From: Pseudomonas sp. SORT22 | Lineage (GTDB): Bacteria; Pseudomonadota; Gammaproteobacteria; Pseudomonadales; Pseudomonadaceae | Assembly: GCF_018417635.1 (NCBI RefSeq) | Contig: NZ_CP071007.1 | Location: 4,092,501 to 4,156,500 of the forward strand | Direction: 5' to 3' | Length of the DNA: 64,000 nt | Shown here: piece by piece, positions 21,239 through 54,652 of the stretch | How positions within the stretch are numbered: the stretch's first letter is position 1 | How the letters are laid out: each line of letters opens with the position of its first letter | The notes under the pieces: model-generated | What the model was told of the DNA's origin: nothing | Databases searched by the model: none | Seen by the model: the letters and a program-made list of their open reading frames with translations, nothing else | Translations under genes and position numbers: made by a program

Positions 21239-22903
21239 GTGGAACGCGAATACATGGAATTCGACGTGGTCATTGTCGGCGCTGGCCCGGCTGGCCTGTC
21301 CGCCGCCTGCCGACTGAAGCAGAAGGCCGCCGAAGCCGGTAACGAAATCAGCGTCTGCGTGGTCGAGAAAGGCTCGGAAGTCGGCGCCCACATCCTCTCC
21401 GGTGCGGTGTTCGAACCTCGCGCCCTGAACGAACTGTTCCCGGACTGGAAAGAGCTAGGCGCCCCGCTCAACACCGAAGTCAAACGCGACGACATCTATG
21501 TGCTCAAGGATGCCGGCAGCTCGATCAAGGTCCCTGACCTGTTCGTGCCCAAGACCATGCACAACGAAGGCAACTACATCATCTCTCTGGGTAACCTGTG
21601 CCGCTGGCTGGCCCAGCAGGCGGAGAACCTGGGCGTCGAGATCTACCCGGGCTTCGCCGCCCAGGAAGCCCTGTTCGACGAAAACGGCGTGGTCCGCGGG
21701 ATTATCACCGGCGACCTCGGCGTCGACCGTGAAGGCAACCCGAAAGAAGGCCTGTATACCCCAGGCATGGAGCTGCGCGGCAAGTACACGCTGTTCGCCG
21801 AAGGCTGCCGTGGCCACATCGGCAAACAGCTGATCAAGCGTTTCAACCTCGACAGCGAGTCCGACGTCCAGCATTACGGCATCGGCTTGAAAGAAATCTG
21901 GGAAATCGATCCGGCCAAGCACGAACAAGGCCTGGTTGTGCACACCGCAGGCTGGCCGCTGGATGTCATGGCCAAGGAAAACACCGGTGGATCGTTCCTC
22001 TATCACCTGGAAAACAACCAGGTAGTCGTAGGTTTGATCGTCGACCTGTCCTACTCCAACGCCTACCTGTCGCCGTTTGACGAATTCCAGCGCCTGAAAC
22101 ACCACCCGGTGATCAGCCAGTACCTCGAAGGCGGCAAGCGCATCAGCTACGGCGCCCGCGCCCTGGCCAAAGGTGGTTTGAACTCGCTGCCGAAAATGGT
22201 CTTCGCCGGCGGCGCCCTGATCGGTTGCGATCTGGGCACCATGAACGTGGCCAAAATCAAGGGCAGCCACACCGCCATGAAATCCGGCATGCTCGCCGCC
22301 GATGCGGTGGCCGAAGCCCTGCTGGCAGGTGGTGAAGGCGGCGATCAACTCAACAGCTACGTTACAGCGTTCAAAGCCAGCTGGCTGTATGACGAGCTGT
22401 TCTCCAGCCGTAACTTCGGCCCGGCCATGCACAAGTTCGGCCCGATGCTCGGCGCGGCGTTCAACTACCTCGACCAGAACTGGTTCGGTGGCAAACTGCC
22501 GTTCACCCTGCACGACACCAAGCCGGACTACGCCTGCCTGAAGCTGGCGGCCGACTCGAAAAAAATCGACTATCCAAAACCGGATGGCAAGCTGAGCTTC
22601 GACAAGCTGAGCTCGGTATTCCTCTCCAGCACCAACCATGAAGAAGAGCAGCCGTGCCACCTGAAACTGGCTGACGCGAGCATCCCGATCGGCACCAACC
22701 TGCCGCTGTACGACGAACCGGCCCAGCGCTACTGCCCGGCTGGCGTGTACGAAGTAGTCAGCCAGGAAGACGGCAGCAAGCGCTTCCAGATCAACGCCCA
22801 GAACTGCGTGCACTGCAAGACCTGTGACATCAAGGACCCTTCGCAGAACATTACCTGGGTCACCCCGGAAGGCGCCGGCGGCCCGACTTACCCGAACATG
22901 TAA
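21239..22903 (+). CDS. Electron transfer flavoprotein-ubiquinone oxidoreductase
   Basis: A 554-residue inner-membrane-associated flavoprotein that passes electrons from EtfAB to ubiquinone. It has FAD-binding VVIVGAGPAGLSAACRLKQK, EKGSEVGAHILSGAVFEPRA, and the C-terminal 4Fe-4S domain (cysteines in RYCPAGVYE and NAQNCVHCKTCDIKDP). I chose the GTG start giving MEREYMEFDVV because AGGAG lies 7 bases before it; an in-frame TTG six codons upstream overlaps that ribosome site. The divergent etfBA operon encodes its electron donor. Confidence 0.96.
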   Translation: MEREYMEFDVVIVGAGPAGLSAACRLKQKAAEAGNEISVCVVEKGSEVGAHILSGAVFEPRALNELFPDWKELGAPLNTEVKRDDIYVLKDAGSSIKVPDLFVPKTMHNEGNYIISLGNLCRWLAQQAENLGVEIYPGFAAQEALFDENGVVRGIITGDLGVDREGNPKEGLYTPGMELRGKYTLFAEGCRGHIGKQLIKRFNLDSESDVQHYGIGLKEIWEIDPAKHEQGLVVHTAGWPLDVMAKENTGGSFLYHLENNQVVVGLIVDLSYSNAYLSPFDEFQRLKHHPVISQYLEGGKRISYGARALAKGGLNSLPKMVFAGGALIGCDLGTMNVAKIKGSHTAMKSGMLAADAVAEALLAGGEGGDQLNSYVTAFKASWLYDELFSSRNFGPAMHKFGPMLGAAFNYLDQNWFGGKLPFTLHDTKPDYACLKLAADSKKIDYPKPDGKLSFDKLSSVFLSSTNHEEEQPCHLKLADASIPIGTNLPLYDEPAQRYCPAGVYEVVSQEDGSKRFQINAQNCVHCKTCDIKDPSQNITWVTPEGAGGPTYPNM

Positions 22904-22917
22904 GTCTGCCGGCAACT

Positions 22918-22957
22918 AAAAAAGCCCTCTCGCCGTTGTGGCCAGGGGGCTTTTTTA
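22918..22957. terminator. Bidirectional terminator, ETF-QO / mqsA
   Basis: AAAAAAGCCCTC, a central region, GGGGGCTTTTTT lies between the convergent ETF-QO and mqsA-like genes and has A/T tracts on both sides, so it can serve both. Confidence 0.8.
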
Positions 22958-22966
22958 TCGCCTGTG

Positions 22967-23368
22967 TCAGGCTGTTCTGACTTCTTCGAACAACTCAGGG
23001 TGGCGATCAAGTAGCTTGAGCAATTTGACCAGGGCCAAGGGAGGCTTGGTCTTGCCGTTTTCGTAACGGGAGAATGCATTGACCCCGCCGCCGAATATTT
23101 CCGCTGCTTCACGCTGATCAAGTGCCAGCTTCTTGCGTACGGCAGCAATAAATTGCGGGTCGACAGCCGCAGCATTGACCTGCCGATTGAAAGCGAGCAT
23201 CGCCGCACTGACACGCCGCGACTCTGTATCACTGAGCACCCTCTCAGCGCAGGCAGGGCAGTAATCCCCGGCAACATCAGTCACCCGGGTTGTCTCACCT
23301 TTGTAGGTGTACGGCAGATCGCGCCTGGCACTGACCAGCTCAGCCGCGCCACAGGCTGGACATTTCAT
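22967..23368 (-). CDS. mqsA: MqsA-type antitoxin (zinc-binding, HTH)
   Basis: A 133-residue protein with two Cys pairs at the N-terminus (MKCPACGAAEL and DYCPACAERVL), the zinc site of MqsA, and a C-terminal XRE helix-turn-helix (DQREAAEIFGGGVNAFSRYE then NGKTKPPLALVKLL). In E. coli MqsA neutralises the toxin MqsR and represses the operon by binding AACCT-N2-4-AGGTT. I chose the ATG at 23368; an upstream in-frame GTG overlaps the toxin-remnant stop. Its toxin partner is only a remnant (23371-23482), so this protein is probably a solitary repressor or anti-toxin. Confidence 0.88.
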   Translation of the reverse strand: MKCPACGAAELVSARRDLPYTYKGETTRVTDVAGDYCPACAERVLSDTESRRVSAAMLAFNRQVNAAAVDPQFIAAVRKKLALDQREAAEIFGGGVNAFSRYENGKTKPPLALVKLLKLLDRHPELFEEVRTA

Positions 23369-23370
23369 TT

Positions 23371-23482
23371 TCACAACTCCTTGAAGGACACGATGAGCAC
23401 ATCATCGATGACCGTCAGTTTCAGGTAGACCCGCCAGCGCCCTGACCGTCGAAAGCCTGCAATGAGGCGTGCCTTTCTCCAT
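23371..23482 (-). pseudogene. mqsR: mqsR toxin remnant with internal deletion and frame change
   Basis: The start translates as MEKGTPHCRLSTVRAL, close to the MqsR N-terminus (E. coli MEKRTPHTRLSQVKKL). In the +1-shifted frame the end reads WRVYLKLTVIDDVLIVSFKE-L-stop, matching the MqsR C-terminus (VYLKITVIHDVLIVSFKEK in E. coli). MqsR is about 98 residues, near 297 nt; only 112 nt remain, so some 185 nt of the middle, including the RNase core, are missing and the two ends are out of frame. The first frame stops after 26 codons. The stop of the C-terminal part lies two bases before the mqsA ATG, the usual operon spacing. Confidence 0.85.
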
Positions 23483-23491
23483 GAGCAAACT

Positions 23492-23504
23492 AACCTAATA
23501 GGTT
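23492..23504. promoter_or_regulatory. MqsA operator palindrome
   Basis: AACCT-AAT-AGGTT is a perfect match to the AACCT-N2-4-AGGTT operator known for E. coli MqsA. It lies 10 bp upstream of the mqsR remnant start. A further half-site (AACCTA read on the minus strand) follows near 23516-23523. Confidence 0.85.
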
Positions 23505-23597
23505 CAATTTGGCAAATAGGTTAATCCATTTGCCCCGCTCTAGAGTCTGCCCGATCAGCGCCCAGGCAGCAGGGAACCATTGTCACAGCAGATGAAC

Positions 23598-24908
23598 TCA
23601 GCAGCGCACCGCCTCATCTTCGAAGGGCACCGCTTCACGTGCGCCAAAGTACAGTGCCGTAAGCAAGCCAACCACACCCATGACCAGGCAAAAGCCCACG
23701 CACACCCATGGGCTCCACGGCATCAGGGCGATCAGCAGCAATGGCGTGGTGCTCGCCCACAGGGCGTAGGCAATGTTGTAGGTAAAGGAAATGCCCGAGA
23801 CGCGAATCTGCGCCGGGAACAAGCCGACCATCACCGATGGCACCACCCCCACCACGCCACAAGACAGGCCAGCAATGGCATAGGCCAGCCCGGTCCAGCC
23901 CCAGCCAGCCACCAGGCTGGCGTAAAGGCCGGCGATGCCCAAGGGCAGCAGCAGGCTGTAGATCATCAAGGCCCGCCAGGCGCCGATACGGTCCACCAGC
24001 AAGCCGGCCAGCACACAACCGATATTGAGAAAAACAATGCCCATGCTGCTCAAGGCGAAGGTGTGCCCGGCACTCATGCCGAAGCGCTGCTGCATCACCG
24101 TCGGGGTGATCACCACCAGCACCACCACCGCCGAGGTCAGCACGCAGGTGAGCAGCGCTGCCGGTATCAGCGCCCGGCGATGCTCACGCAACACGGTGCG
24201 CAAGGGGAAAGCCGGCGGCTGCTCACGGCGCTCGCGCAAGGCCAGGAACACTGGTGTCTCGCTCAACCAGCGGCGCAGCCAGACGCCGATCACGCCGAAT
24301 ACGCCGCCGAGCAGGAACGGGTAGCGCCAGGCGTAATCGAGGATTTCCTGGGGGCTGAACAGCTGTGCCAGCGCCGTGGCGGTCAGGGCGCCGAGCAGGT
24401 AACCGAAGGTCAGCCCTGCCTGCAAAAAACCCAGGGCGTAGCCGCGGCGCCCGGGCGGGGCGTGCTCGGCGACGAAGGTCCAGGCGCTCGGCACCTCGCC
24501 CCCTACCGCGGCACCCTGAAGGATGCGCAAGGCCAGCAGGATCAGCGGCGCTGCGTAGCCAATATCGGCATAGGTGGGCATCACCCCGATCAGCAGGCAC
24601 GGCAAGGCCATCATCAGGATGCTCAGGCTGAACACCCGTTTGCGCCCCAGGTGGTCGGCGAAATGGGCCATCAGGATGCCGCCCAGCGGCCGCGCCAGAT
24701 AACCGGTTACAAAAATCCCGAAGCTCTGCAGCAAACGCAGCCATTCGGGCATCTGCGGTGGGAAGAACAACTGGCTAAGGGTCAGGGCGAAGAACACGAA
24801 TATGATGAAGTCGTAGATCTCCAGCGCCCCGCCCAGGGCCGCCAGGCTCAGGGTCTTGTGGTCGCTGCGCGATAGCTGCAGCGGGCGCGCAGGGTCAGTG
24901 GCCGTCAT
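23598..24908 (-). CDS. MFS transporter, metabolite:H+ symporter type
   Basis: A 436-residue inner-membrane protein with about 12 hydrophobic segments. The MHS-type signature is visible: GALEIYDFIIFVFFALTLSQ in helix 1, GILMAHFADHLGRKRVFSLS in the loop 2-3 motif, and LRILQGAAVGGEVPSAWTFV in helix 4. This family imports organic acids or osmolytes with protons; the substrate cannot be told here. The ATG at 24908 is used; upstream codons lack family similarity. It stands alone with no catabolic neighbours. Confidence 0.88.
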   Translation of the reverse strand: MTATDPARPLQLSRSDHKTLSLAALGGALEIYDFIIFVFFALTLSQLFFPPQMPEWLRLLQSFGIFVTGYLARPLGGILMAHFADHLGRKRVFSLSILMMALPCLLIGVMPTYADIGYAAPLILLALRILQGAAVGGEVPSAWTFVAEHAPPGRRGYALGFLQAGLTFGYLLGALTATALAQLFSPQEILDYAWRYPFLLGGVFGVIGVWLRRWLSETPVFLALRERREQPPAFPLRTVLREHRRALIPAALLTCVLTSAVVVLVVITPTVMQQRFGMSAGHTFALSSMGIVFLNIGCVLAGLLVDRIGAWRALMIYSLLLPLGIAGLYASLVAGWGWTGLAYAIAGLSCGVVGVVPSVMVGLFPAQIRVSGISFTYNIAYALWASTTPLLLIALMPWSPWVCVGFCLVMGVVGLLTALYFGAREAVPFEDEAVRC

Positions 24909-25004
24909 AGGGGTATCCGCAAGTGATCGAGTGCCGGTACGACAGGCGCACCAAGGCAAACGCAAGAGGATAGCAAAAGCTACCCGGCCACACCCAGCGC
25001 GGCT

Positions 25005-25671: not shown

Positions 25672-26172
25672 TTACTGCGATTCCCACTGACGCATGCGCA
25701 GCCGGCAGTGTTTCATGGCGTTAACAATATGTTTCTCCACCACACTGCGCGAGATGCCCAGGCGCTCGGCGATCTGCGGGTGAGAAAGGCCGTCGAGCTT
25801 GCGCAGCAGAAAACTCTCGCGACAAGGCTGACTGAGTTCGGCCAGGGCGCGCTGCATCAGGTCCAGGCGCTGATTGAGGTCCATGCTTTGGGATGGCGCG
25901 GGGGTAAAGAAACGCTCATCGCTGTCGAGCACTTCAAGCGGCTCGGACTGGCGCAGCAAACCACGTCGATGCCCATCGATCACAAGATTCAGAGCGGTGC
26001 GATAGAGAAACGCCCGGGGATGCTCGATATCGTCTTCACCGCTGCGCTCGAGCACGCGGATATAGGCATCGTGGGCAACGTCTTCAGCCGCCTGCCGGTT
26101 ACCCAGGCGGGCACAGAGAAAACTCACCAGTTCGCGATAGTAGTTTTCCAACACAACACCTGGCCGCGACAT
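25672..26172 (-). CDS. FecI-like ECF sigma factor
   Basis: A 166-residue ECF sigma factor with region 2 (LENYYRELVSFLCARLGNRQ, AEDVAHDAYIRVLE, RAFLYRTALNLVIDGHRR) and region 4 (CRESFLLRKLDGLSHPQIAE, LGISRSVVEKHIVNAMKHC). These are the FecI/iron-starvation subgroup motifs. No FecR-like anti-sigma gene or TonB receptor is adjacent, which is unusual for the group. A Fur-box-like site at 26232-26250 is upstream, and the divergent gene is pvdR. The ATG at 26172 begins MSRPGVVLENYY. Confidence 0.88.
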   Translation of the reverse strand: MSRPGVVLENYYRELVSFLCARLGNRQAAEDVAHDAYIRVLERSGEDDIEHPRAFLYRTALNLVIDGHRRGLLRQSEPLEVLDSDERFFTPAPSQSMDLNQRLDLMQRALAELSQPCRESFLLRKLDGLSHPQIAERLGISRSVVEKHIVNAMKHCRLRMRQWESQ

Positions 26173-26231
26173 CTGCGGGGGTTCCCTGACTCGTGGTTGA
26201 GCGGATCTGAATGATGGCAGTATGCAATAAT

Positions 26232-26250
26232 ACAAATTATAATTATTCTC
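26232..26250 (-). promoter_or_regulatory. Fur-box-like site before the FecI-like sigma gene
   Basis: Read on the minus strand, GAGAATAATTATAATTTGT matches 12 of 19 positions of the Fur consensus GATAATGATAATCATTATC and lies in an unusually AT-rich stretch 60 bp before the sigma-factor ATG. Confidence 0.55.
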
Positions 26251-26274
26251 AGCAAGATCAGACCTTGATCCCGG

Positions 26275-26298
26275 TAAATTCCACGGCCCCCACCTCGT
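26275..26298 (+). promoter_or_regulatory. PvdS iron-starvation box for pvdRT-opmQ
   Basis: TAAAT, 16 bases, CGT is the iron-starvation box recognised by PvdS. It ends 80 bp before the pvdR ATG, so the efflux operon should be made under iron limitation. Confidence 0.8.
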
Positions 26299-26378
26299 TT
26301 ACCTGGGAGCCTCCCGTGTCTGCCGTGCCGCTTCGGCAGTGAGATGTCACGGGCCATTCCATCCGGCTGGAACCCTGC

Positions 26379-27557
26379 ATGAAACGCTCACCGAATACTC
26401 GTCGCCTGCTGTTGTGTGGCCTCGGCCTGCTCAGCCTGGGCGCCCTGCTCGCCTGGAAAACCCTGCCCGCCGGTGGCGACCCGTTGAGCACCGTTACCGT
26501 GACCCGTACCGACATCGAAAGCAGCGTCACGGCCCTGGGTACCTTGCAGCCGCGGCGTTATGTGGACGTGGGTGCCCAGGCCTCCGGGCAGATCCGCAAA
26601 CTGCACGTCGAGGTGGGAGATCAGGTCAAGGAAGGTCAGTTGCTGGTTGAGATCGACCCCTCCACGCAGCAGGCAAAGCTTGATGCCGGGCGTTTCTCGA
26701 TCGACAACCTCAAGGCCCAGCTGGATGAGCAGAAGGCTCAGTACCAACTGGCCGAGCAACAGTTCAAGCGCCAGCGCAACCTGGCCGCCGGCGGCGCCAC
26801 CCGCGAGGAAGACGTGCAAAGCGCCCAGGCCCAGCTGAAGGTCACCCAGGCGCGCATCGACATGTACCGCGCACAGATTCGCCAGGCCCAGGCGAGCCTG
26901 CGCAGCGACGAGGCTGAGCTGGGTTACACGCGCATATATGCACCGATGGCCGGCACCGTGGTCGCCGTCGATGCCCGCGAAGGCCAGACCCTTAACGCCC
27001 AACAGCAAACCCCGCTGATCCTGCGCATCGCCAAGTTGTCGCCAATGACCGTCTGGGCCCAGGTGTCCGAGGCCGATATCGGCCATGTCAAACCGGGCAT
27101 GAGCGCCTACTTCACCACCCTGGCCGGCGGCAAGCGCCGCTGGACCAGCAGTGTGCGGCAAATTCTGCCGGTGCCGCCCAAACCCCTCGATCAATCCAGC
27201 CAGGGCGGTGGCAGCCCGGCCAGCGCCAGTGGTAGCGGCGCCAGCAGCAAAGTGGTGCTCTATACCGTACTGCTGGATGTCGATAACCCGGACAACGCCC
27301 TGATGGCAGAGATGACCACCCAGGTGTTCTTCGTTGCCGGGCGTGCCAGCAAGGTGCTCACCGTACCGGTGGCAGCCCTGGATGATCATGCCGACGGCAA
27401 TGACCTGCGCATTGCCCAGGTGCTCGACAGCAAGGGCAAGGTCAACCAGCGCCAGGTCCGCACCGGCCTCAGCGACCGCTTGCGGGTGCAGGTGCTCGAC
27501 GGCCTTGCCGAGGGCGAGCGCCTGCTGATCGGCGCACCTGCCGCAAGCGGGGGTTGA
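26379..27557 (+). CDS. pvdR: Pyoverdine efflux periplasmic adaptor (MacA-like)
   Basis: A 392-residue HlyD/MacA-type membrane fusion protein: one N-terminal membrane segment (LLLCGLGLLSLGALLAW), a lipoyl-like half (VDVGAQASGQIRKLHVEVGD), a helical hairpin (about 95-170), a second lipoyl half (TRIYAPMAGTVVAVDAREGQ) and a beta-barrel domain. With PvdT and OpmQ it forms the tripartite pump that exports or recycles pyoverdine from the periplasm. An IS box precedes it. The stop is directly followed by the pvdT ATG. Confidence 0.93.
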   Translation: MKRSPNTRRLLLCGLGLLSLGALLAWKTLPAGGDPLSTVTVTRTDIESSVTALGTLQPRRYVDVGAQASGQIRKLHVEVGDQVKEGQLLVEIDPSTQQAKLDAGRFSIDNLKAQLDEQKAQYQLAEQQFKRQRNLAAGGATREEDVQSAQAQLKVTQARIDMYRAQIRQAQASLRSDEAELGYTRIYAPMAGTVVAVDAREGQTLNAQQQTPLILRIAKLSPMTVWAQVSEADIGHVKPGMSAYFTTLAGGKRRWTSSVRQILPVPPKPLDQSSQGGGSPASASGSGASSKVVLYTVLLDVDNPDNALMAEMTTQVFFVAGRASKVLTVPVAALDDHADGNDLRIAQVLDSKGKVNQRQVRTGLSDRLRVQVLDGLAEGERLLIGAPAASGG

Positions 27558-29525
27558 ATGTCCACGCCCCTGATCGAACTGCGCGACATCCGCAAATCCT
27601 ACGGTGGTGTCGATACGCCCAAGGTCGAGGTGGTCCGCGGCATCAGCCTGGCCATCCATCCCGGCGAGTTCGTCGCCATTGTCGGCGCCTCCGGCTCCGG
27701 CAAGTCGACGCTGATGAACATCCTCGGCTGCCTTGATCGTCCGACCTCAGGCAACTACTACTTCGCCGGCAAGGACGTCGCCGACCTCGACAGCGACGAG
27801 CTGGCCTGGTTGCGCCGTGAAGCCTTCGGCTTCGTGTTCCAGGGCTATCACCTGATCGCTTCGGGCTCGGCCCAGGAAAACGTCGAGATGCCGGCCATCT
27901 ATGCTGGCACCCCCGCCGCCGAACGCCATGCCCGCGCCGCCGCCTTGCTCGAACGCCTGGGCCTGGCCAGCCGCACCGGCAACCGCCCGCACCAGTTGTC
28001 TGGCGGCCAGCAACAGCGGGTGTCGATCGCCCGCGCCTTGATGAACGGCGGACACATCATCCTCGCCGACGAACCGACCGGGGCACTGGACAGCCAGAGC
28101 GGCGCCGAAGTCATGGCCCTGCTCGACGAACTGGCCAGCCAGGGCCACGTGGTGATCCTGATTACCCACGACCGCGAAGTCGCGGCGCGGGCCAAGCGGG
28201 TCATCGAGATTCGTGACGGCCTGGTGCTCAGTGATTCGGCAGAGCAATCTGCTGCTCCCGCCGCCAGCGCTCCCGGCCTGCAAGCCGAAGACCTGCGCCA
28301 GCGCCTGAACCTCGGCGCCACTGCCAGCGGCGCCTGGAAAGGCGAGCTGGTCGAAGCCCTGCAGGCGGCCTGGCGGATCATGTGGATCAACCGTTTCCGC
28401 ACCGCCCTGACCCTGCTCGGGATCGTCATCGGCGTGGCTTCGGTAGTGGTCATGCTGGCCGTCGGCGAAGGCAGCAAGCGCCAGGTCATGGCGCAGATGG
28501 CAGCCTTCGGCTCGAACATCCTGTACCTGAGCGGCAGCGCCCCGACACTGCGTGAACCGGCCGGGGTCATCACCCTCGACGATGTCGCCGCAGTATCCAG
28601 CCTGCCGCAGGTGAAGATGATCATGCCGGTGATCGGCAACTCGCTGATGGTGCGCTACGGCAACAATAACCAGCAGTTCTATGTGGGTGGCAACAACACC
28701 CACTTCAGCGAAATCTTCAATTGGCCGGTGGTCGAAGGCAGCTTCTTCACCGAGGCCGATGAACAGAGCGCGGCAGCCGTGGCGGTCATCGGCCAGAAGG
28801 TGCGGGAGAAACTATTTGGAGCCGGTAACGACCCCATCGGCCAGTACATCCTGGTCGAAAACGTGCCCTTCCAGGTGGTCGGCATTCTCGCCGGCAAAGG
28901 CGCAAGCTCGGGCGACCAGGACAGCGACGAGCGCATCGTGGTGCCCTACTCGGCCGCCGCCATCCGCCTGTTCGGCAGCCGCAACCCGGAGTACGTGACC
29001 ATCGCCGCCGCCGACTCACGGCGCGTGGCCGACACGGAAGCGGCCATCGACCACCTGATGCGCAAGCTTCACAACGGCAAGCACGACTATGAACTGACCA
29101 ACGACGCGGCGCTGATCCAGGCCGAAGCGCGCACGCAGAATACCCTGTCGCTGATGCTCGGCTCGATCGCCGCGATCTCGCTGCTGGTCGGCGGTATCGG
29201 GGTGATGAACATCATGCTGATGACGGTGCGCGAGCGTACCCGCGAGATCGGCATCCGCATGGCCACTGGCGCCCGCCAGCGCGACATCCTGCGCCAGTTT
29301 CTCAGCGAAGCGGTGCTGCTGTCGATGGTCGGCGGGGTCACCGGCATTGCCCTGGCCCTGTTGATTGGCGGCGTGTTGCTGCTGGCCGATATTGCCGTGG
29401 CCTTCTCCTTGCCTGCCGTGCTTGGCGCCTTTGCCTGCGCGGTGGTCACCGGCGTGGTGTTCGGCTTCATGCCCGCGCGCAAAGCCGCCCGCCTCGACCC
29501 GGTCAAAGCCCTTACCAGCGAATAA
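27558..29525 (+). CDS. pvdT: Pyoverdine efflux ABC transporter (MacB-like)
   Basis: A 655-residue MacB-type protein. N-terminal ATPase: Walker [16 protein letters not shown] near residue 43, signature [15 protein letters not shown] near 147, Walker [14 protein letters not shown] near 168. C-terminal part: one membrane helix near 290, a large periplasmic domain, and three more helices with the FtsX-type motif [20 protein letters not shown] near 565. It hydrolyses ATP to drive the PvdR-OpmQ channel. It directly follows pvdR and is 3 bp from opmQ. Confidence 0.94.
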
Positions 29526-41581: not shown

Positions 41582-54544
<12,963 letters not shown>

Positions 54545-54652
54545 GAGGGGTTCCTGCCAGAGTCTGTACGTGAAATCAGGTCTCGGCCAGCGCAGGGCGG
54601 GCACACTGGCACCGCGTTGCGCCTTGCCGGAGCCGAGGATGTACAGAGAGGA

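What the first reader, a model, noticed from the sequence alone, without database searches (positions are those of the whole stretch)
22967..23504. Decayed mqsRA: solitary MqsA antitoxin beside an mqsR gene that lost its core
The upstream 112 bp keep both ends of MqsR (MEKGTPHCRLSTVRAL; VYLKLTVIDDVLIVSFKE) in different frames, with about 185 nt missing. The MqsA-like antitoxin and a perfect AACCT-AAT-AGGTT operator remain. This catches a toxin-antitoxin module after toxin loss and retention of the antitoxin, which may now work only as a regulator or protect against other MqsR copies.
Basis: partly seen in the sequence, partly recalled or inferred. Interest (0 to 1): 0.72.

Follow-up and report, generated by a model that had tools for sequence, protein, structure and literature searches.

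The report
Gutted toxin gene, intact antitoxin
A Pseudomonas genome has lost the middle of a self-poisoning gene but still keeps the matching antidote gene and its control site; it looks like a fresh case of a known kind of decay, and similar losses turn up in other bacteria.

Summary
Observation confirmed. Aligned with an intact mqsRA pair between the same two genes in a related genome (G096), this locus lacks exactly 185 nt inside mqsR. The first 47 and last 65 nt remain, in different frames. mqsA is full length, and a perfect 13-bp operator precedes the old mqsR start.

"Toxin lost, antitoxin kept" is supported. The proposed new jobs are not: no other MqsR was found in the genome, and of four perfect operators only this one lies outside a long reading frame. 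The remnant differs from G096 at 5 of 113 nt compared, mqsA at 65 of 399, so the deletion is probably recent.

Toxin-first loss recurs: 10 of 45 full-length mqsA loci examined in the genus sample lack a full mqsR ORF, while all 36 intact close-family mqsR genes in the capped list have a full mqsA. Sixteen distinct loci, from two phyla, have a gutted mqsR; 14 keep a ribosome-binding motif before mqsA.

This is a new member of a known kind: a degrading toxin-antitoxin locus with an orphan antitoxin.

The parts
22967..23368 (-). mqsA, 133-aa antitoxin (N-terminal zinc domain with Cys3, Cys6, Cys37, Cys40; C-terminal HTH)
   Evidence: Pfam PF15731 206.5 bits; PDB 3gn5/3o9x match E 8.7e-41; zinc cysteine positions from PMC2791442 (passages) matched by counting the translation
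23371..23435 (-). 3' end of mqsR (codons for RVYLKLTVIDDVLIVSFKEL and stop), carrying the mqsA ribosome-binding motif AAGGAG
   Evidence: 2 differences in 65 nt from intact G096; PF15723 positions 76-95, below cut-off
23435..23436 (-). deletion junction: 185 nt of mqsR absent relative to G096
   Evidence: pairwise alignment
23436..23482 (-). 5' end of mqsR (MEKGTPHCRLSTVRAL...)
   Evidence: 3 differences in 48 nt compared with intact G096
23402..23482 (-). 26-codon out-of-frame mini-ORF now starting at the old mqsR start codon
23492..23504 (.). MqsA operator palindrome AACCT-NNN-AGGTT
   Evidence: sequence; 1 of 4 such places in the genome and the only one outside a long ORF
23515..23522 (-). 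upstream half-site AACCTATT, a direct repeat of the operator's left half
   Evidence: sequence, by eye
22918..22958 (.). GC-rich imperfect hairpin with A and T tracts between ETF-QO and mqsA, possibly a shared terminator
   Evidence: by eye from the sequence; the consensus scan did not list it
21254..22903 (+). ETF-ubiquinone oxidoreductase, left flank of the site
   Evidence: Pfam PF05187, PF21162
23598..24965 (-). MFS transporter, right flank of the site
   Evidence: Pfam PF07690 119.6 bits

Best explanation
This is a type II toxin-antitoxin module (MqsRA, toxin gene first) in an early stage of decay. A single 185-nt internal deletion removed the core of the toxin gene (shown by alignment) and probably happened recently (inferred from low divergence). 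What remains is an autoregulated solitary antitoxin gene: operator, old mqsR start, mqsA ribosome-binding motif and mqsA are all in place. MqsA should still be made and should still repress its own promoter, now with no MqsR to take it off the DNA (inferred from work on P. putida). Losing the toxin first is the safer order, and because the mqsA ribosome-binding motif sits inside the last codons of mqsR, a deletion that kills the toxin and spares the antitoxin tends to core out mqsR and leave its 3' end (inferred). The locus is expected to go on to mqsA truncation and finally an empty site, states that are seen in relatives.
For: Precise gap against an intact copy between the same two flanking genes. 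No other MqsR found in the genome. Among 55 genomes in the ETF-QO tree the site holds an intact pair in 10, a broken mqsR with full mqsA in 5, a truncated mqsA without mqsR in 4 and no match in the stretch examined in 36. Remnant 5/113 differences from G096, mqsA 65/399; against outgroup BGr12 the window remnant and the intact G096 segments differ equally, 9/113 each. The separate deletions in G110 (9/176 against intact G104) and G259 (1/75 against intact G346), operator included, are also little changed (local alignments, which favour low counts). Direction: 10 of 45 loci with full mqsA lack a full mqsR ORF; 36 of 36 intact close-family mqsR matches in the capped list have a full MqsA beside them. 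E. coli: at least 80% of mqsA in 2290 of 5426 genomes, of mqsR in 2264. MqsA autorepression through such a palindrome is shown for P. putida KT2440 (PMC5422877, passages).
Against: mqsA shows no relaxed selection in broken loci: median nearest-neighbour dN/dS 0.076 (n=10) against 0.065 (n=32), p=0.80, pairs not independent; this fits recency but also selection to keep MqsA. The mqsR ends are fairly conserved in some intact pairs too (9/113 in G096-BGr12, 11/113 in G093-G319), so low divergence may partly be constraint. The toxin is mild in KT2440, where mqsA could be deleted (PMC7280312, passages), so loss of the antitoxin first is not strictly barred. The empty and intact states are scattered over the tree, so repeated gain is as possible as decay. 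The 16 gutted loci with full mqsA could mean that the solitary state is kept; but loci were found by their mqsA, which favours intact mqsA.
Confidence: 0.75

Rival explanations
1. Domesticated regulator: after toxin loss MqsA is retained because it controls other genes through ACCTNNNAGGT sites.
For: In P. putida KT2440 MqsA represses its own operon, and the paper has a section headed 'MqsA Negatively Regulates Other Genes' with reporters for algU and PP_3288 (PMC5422877, passages). HTH domain and operator intact here; dN/dS low.
Against: Four perfect 13-bp sites in the genome, three of them inside long ORFs. Of 84 relaxed sites, 22 others were examined and all lie in ORFs, though long chance ORFs are common in GC-rich DNA; seven were scanned with Pfam and four have a recognised gene over the site. 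Fraikin et al. report that E. [quoted passage not shown] mqsA is truncated in four relatives at this site.
Confidence: 0.1
2. Anti-addiction: the solitary MqsA protects the cell against MqsR carried by incoming plasmids or other elements.
For: MqsR relatives are in 49 of 72,556 plasmid records (27 covering at least 80% of the query), 2 of them Pseudomonas, 23 of 49 predicted conjugative. Orphan antitoxins are proposed as anti-addiction modules (PMC7354431, passages; PMC7192599, passages).
Against: Such plasmids are rare; none of 50,697 phage records matched at E 1e-5. The best full-length plasmid match is 71% identical, so cross-neutralisation is untested. Recency removes the need for a reason.
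Confidence: 0.1
3. Assembly or sequencing artefact: the deletion is not in the organism.
For: Reads were not available.
Against: Single-contig complete genome; a clean 185-nt gap with both ends conserved; deletions of other sizes at the same site in G259, G110 and P. reidholzensis.
Confidence: 0.03

Closest known systems
MqsRA of Pseudomonas putida KT2440 (PP_4205-PP_4204)
   Same: Toxin gene then antitoxin gene; palindrome ACCT-N3-AGGT at the mqsR ribosome-binding site; autorepression by MqsA (PMC5422877, passages). That KT2440 mqsRA lies beside ETF-QO is recalled from gene numbering, not from a call.
   Different: KT2440 mqsR is intact and toxic; here 185 nt of mqsR are gone. Operator spacer GGA there, ATT here.
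MqsRA of Escherichia coli K-12
   Same: MqsA alignable over its whole length; zinc cysteines at 3, 6, 37, 40
   Different: E. coli has two mqsA promoters inside mqsR (PMC6918082, section 6 read); whether equivalents existed in the core lost here is unknown.
Orphan antitoxins left by degrading TA loci (Klebsiella survey; Caulobacter ParD beside a parE pseudogene and Shigella YacB frameshift as cited in PMC7354431)
   Same: Full antitoxin, broken or missing toxin, often the same genomic context as the intact pair (PMC7192599, passages; PMC7354431, passages)
   Different: Here the deletion is mapped to the base and judged recent, and a cored-out toxin gene recurs within one TA family.

Membership tests
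MqsA antitoxin family (PF15731) | profile score over the curated cut-off along the full length | tested here: met
   206.5 bits, cut-off 30, profile positions 1-131 of 131
MqsA antitoxin family (PF15731) | four zinc-binding cysteines | tested here: met
   Cys3, 6, 37, 40 present by counting the translation; positions from PMC2791442 (passages)
MqsA antitoxin family (PF15731) | binds AACCT-N3-AGGTT in its own promoter | not testable with these tools
   operator present at 23492-23504; binding needs EMSA
MqsR toxin family (PF15723) | full-length toxin ORF above the curated cut-off | tested here: not met
   only positions 76-95, 16.6 bits, cut-off 26.2; 185 nt missing
Functional type II toxin-antitoxin system | toxin and antitoxin both encoded | tested here: not met
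   no other MqsR match in the genome at E 10
Degraded TA locus with orphan antitoxin | antitoxin intact, toxin broken, context shared with an intact pair | tested here: met
Domesticated transcription regulator | binding sites upstream of other genes | tested here: inconclusive
   no perfect site outside a long ORF but its own; 22 of 84 relaxed sites looked at, all in ORFs

The most novel reading that the evidence does not exclude
Coring of mqsR is a repeated end-product rather than a passing stage: in two phyla deletions leave the operator side, the mqsR start and the mqsR tail with the mqsA ribosome-binding motif, making an autorepressed solitary MqsA with a short leader peptide (in frame in G259, 14 aa, and in L112, 48 aa), kept because standing MqsA protects against mobile MqsR.
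Probability: 0.1. Interest if true: 0.5.

Novelty: new member of a known kind. Interest (0 to 1): 0.3.

Why it matters
It gives a base-precise example of how a chromosomal toxin-antitoxin module may die, with intact, gutted, truncated and empty states all found at one chromosomal site in related species. That series makes it possible to ask directly whether orphan antitoxins are kept for a purpose or are simply on their way out. The toxin-first order and the spared mqsA ribosome-binding motif follow from the gene order and can be tested.

Tried and rejected
Other MqsR copies as a reason to keep MqsA: none found. A regulon through perfect operators: three further sites, all inside long ORFs, one in the large ORF of this window at 41582-54604. 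The KT2440 algU-type site ACCTGCCAGGT: seven places, all inside ORFs; four of the seven covering ORFs had a Pfam family (cytochrome oxidase, urease, FMN oxidoreductase, permease), three had none. I did not locate algU itself. A sigma-70 promoter before the remnant: the consensus scan found none, 0 against 0.3 expected. Relaxed selection on mqsA in broken loci: not seen; the three-point branch estimates of that script were noisy, some negative, and are not used. A toxin loss shared by the sister genomes G259 and G025: each keeps a piece that the other lacks, so a shared loss is not shown. Microhomology at the junction: about one base, by eye. The same deletion in another genome: a DNA search of 115 relatives matched 10, G000 included, the other nine only in part; I saw no second copy of this junction among the loci aligned or printed.

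Limits of the counts. The built-in control genomes hold none over the MqsR cut-off, so they are no positive control; that the search works rests on 178 of 398 genus genomes over the cut-off. The 398 genomes were drawn from a larger group. The list was cut off at about E 2e-25, so weaker MqsR matches were not seen; 'close family' there means matches of 276-279 bases, 37 in the list, of which G126 has a stop. In the named set 2 of 80 were dropped for too little upstream DNA (L073, L075). Of the 19 flagged, L086, L101, L111, L119, L129 and L131 keep a near-complete MqsR match or ORF and were not counted as gutted; L089 and L093 are frameshifts already counted as G155 and G278. L136 passed the ORF filter but matches only MqsR residues 61-98 and was counted as gutted. 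G255 had no locus in hand and counts as intact from coordinates alone. L078 and L104 gave no MqsR match by program; their 3' remnants, the missing ends of several others and the ribosome-binding motif of L136 were read by eye. No chance rate was computed for that motif; 35 of 35 intact loci have it. The two E. coli counts come from separate near-identity searches, and I did not check that the genomes are the same. G371, G193, G189 and G308 were examined at the site and had no match but are not in the tree; G045 was not fetched.

That a cored mqsR is not in print rests only on the open-access searches. Recalled, from no call: MqsR catalytic residues, MqsA Asn97 and Arg101 as DNA contacts, a paper on MqsA in P. 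fluorescens 2P24 that one search did not return, and the phylum and class of named organisms.

Full report
What is there. On the minus strand, between an ETF-ubiquinone oxidoreductase gene (21254-22903) and an MFS transporter gene (23598-24965), lies a full mqsA (22967-23368, 133 aa). It scores 206.5 bits against Pfam MqsA_antitoxin and matches E. coli MqsA structures over residues 3-133. Directly upstream is a 112-nt remnant of mqsR, 23371-23482. Nine bases further up is the palindrome AACCTAATAGGTT, 23492-23504.

The deletion. G096, a genome of the same genus with 91% DNA identity in the ETF-QO gene, has an intact mqsR-mqsA pair between the same two genes. Aligned with it, the window lacks one stretch of exactly 185 nt; the first 47 and last 65 nt of mqsR remain. 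The old start codon now opens a 26-codon ORF that ends 33 nt before mqsA. The mqsA ribosome-binding motif AAGGAG lies in the retained last codons of mqsR. In the genome, one contig of 5.80 Mb, the MqsR profile finds only this scrap, below its cut-off. There is one true MqsA; four weaker matches are all below the cut-off.

How it most likely works. In P. putida KT2440 MqsA alone binds such a palindrome and represses the operon, and MqsR blocks that binding (PMC5422877, passages). With operator, zinc cysteines, HTH domain and ribosome-binding motif in place, MqsA here should still be made and repress itself, with nothing left to neutralise. These steps are inferred; only the parts are shown. The consensus scan found no sigma-70 promoter. 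In E. coli two promoters for mqsA lie inside mqsR (PMC6918082, section 6); if this lineage had such promoters in the lost core, expression would now depend on the operator-controlled promoter.

Age. Between window and G096 the mqsR ends differ at 5 of 113 nt compared and mqsA at 65 of 399. Pairwise dS is 0.94 for mqsA and 0.35 for ETF-QO. Had the remnant been free of coding constraint since the split, about 20 (ETF-QO rate) to 50 (mqsA rate) changes would be expected on the window side; this is my arithmetic from those rates. Against the outgroup BGr12 the window remnant and the intact G096 segments differ equally, 9 of 113. So the deletion is probably recent. Against this, the mqsR ends are fairly conserved in some intact pairs (9 of 113 in G096-BGr12, 11 of 113 in G093-G319) though not in others (29 of 113 in G170-G323), so part of the low divergence may be constraint. 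The deletions in G110 and G259 look young too, 9 of 176 and 1 of 75 differences from the nearest intact copies, operator included; these are local alignments, which favour low counts.

The same site in relatives. The 55 genomes in the ETF-QO tree are the 54 most similar to the window in that gene (window included) plus G323. Ten have an intact pair here, 5 a broken mqsR with full mqsA (G000, G110, G025, G259, G278), 4 a truncated mqsA without mqsR (G127, G174, G342, G200) and 36 no match in the stretch examined. The states are scattered over the tree, and the genomes closest to the window in this gene (G089, G007, G285, G357, G015, G271, 92-94%) have no match, so gain, loss or both are frequent at this site. 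Silent divergence of mqsA exceeds that of ETF-QO, which could mean exchange of the module between species or weaker codon bias; I did not separate these.

How general. In 398 genomes sampled from the genus, 46 loci encode a full-length MqsA of at least 56% identity; DNA was in hand for 45. Ten of 45 lack a full MqsR ORF: five gutted (G000, G259, G110, G025, G307), four frameshifted (G278, G155, G250, G113) and one with an in-frame stop (G126). Frameshifts in draft assemblies could be sequence errors. Conversely, the listed part holds 37 MqsR matches of the close-family length; 36 have no stop, and each of these lies beside a full MqsA match. Among the 80 named loci most like the window's MqsA, 78 had enough upstream DNA and 12 are gutted: L076, L078, L090, L104, L112, L121, L123, L133, L135, L136, L137, L143. 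L121 is the locus of G025, so there are 16 distinct gutted loci; by record title 15 are Pseudomonadota and one (L133) is Acidobacteriota. Fourteen of 16 keep an AGGA, GGAG or GAGG motif within 20 nt of mqsA (not L078, L143), and nine keep both ends of mqsR (G000, G259, G110, L090, L076, L112, L123, L133, L137), partly read by eye. Loci were found by their mqsA, which favours full mqsA. In E. coli 2290 of 5426 genomes have a place covering at least 80% of mqsA and 2264 one covering at least 80% of mqsR; strains may be clonal.

Is MqsA kept for a purpose? Nearest-neighbour dN/dS of mqsA has a median of 0.076 in 10 broken loci and 0.065 in 32 intact ones, p=0.80, with pairs that are not independent. 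This cannot separate selection from recency; with young deletions, recency suffices. A regulon is not supported: the perfect operator occurs at four places, three of them in long ORFs. The relaxed motif occurs at 84 places; 22 others were examined and all lie in ORFs, but long chance ORFs are common in this GC-rich DNA. Anti-addiction is possible: MqsR relatives occur in 49 of 72,556 plasmid records, two from Pseudomonas, and in none of 50,697 phage records at E 1e-5.

Compared with what is known. Orphan antitoxins, many from degrading TA loci, are described in surveys (PMC7192599, passages; PMC10790755, passages; PMC7354431, passages) with the same proposals: remnant, regulator or anti-addiction. 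In P. [quoted passage not shown] The tolerated removal of mqsA means that toxin-first loss is the safer order, not the only possible one. The window is a new member of a known kind. What may be new, within the open-access papers searched, is the repeated coring of mqsR with the antitoxin's ribosome-binding motif spared.

Verdict. Observation confirmed; toxin loss with antitoxin retention supported; a present function of the solitary MqsA beyond self-repression not shown. Most likely ordinary decay, caught early, with a useful series of relatives.

Noticed in passing
L112:1404-1550: In a gammaproteobacterial MAG the internal deletion of mqsR is in frame and leaves a 48-aa mini-MqsR ORF that keeps both ends; G259 (L191) has an in-frame 14-aa version.
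   Followed up: partly
G270:C3:40957-41178, G154:C14:976810-977022, G070:C34:397751-397960, G344:C2:3828232-3828438, G229:C4:275798-276013: Five genomes of the genus have matches to only the N-terminal zinc half of MqsA (51-60% identity over about 70 residues) in frames of 83-98 aa, one with a stop; possibly one-domain relatives or remnants.
   Followed up: no
21254-23504: Silent divergence of mqsA from G096 (dS 0.94) is much above that of the neighbouring ETF-QO gene (0.35); the module may be exchanged between species by recombination in the flanks.
   Followed up: no
41582-54604: A 4340-aa ORF on the minus strand that reads as a nonribosomal peptide synthetase (recognised by eye, no family search) and holds one of the three other AACCT-N3-AGGTT places of the genome.
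   Followed up: partly
25672-29525: An ECF-sigma-like ORF, then ORFs that read as an efflux fusion protein and an ABC exporter, perhaps part of a siderophore region with the peptide synthetase (recognised by eye).
   Followed up: no
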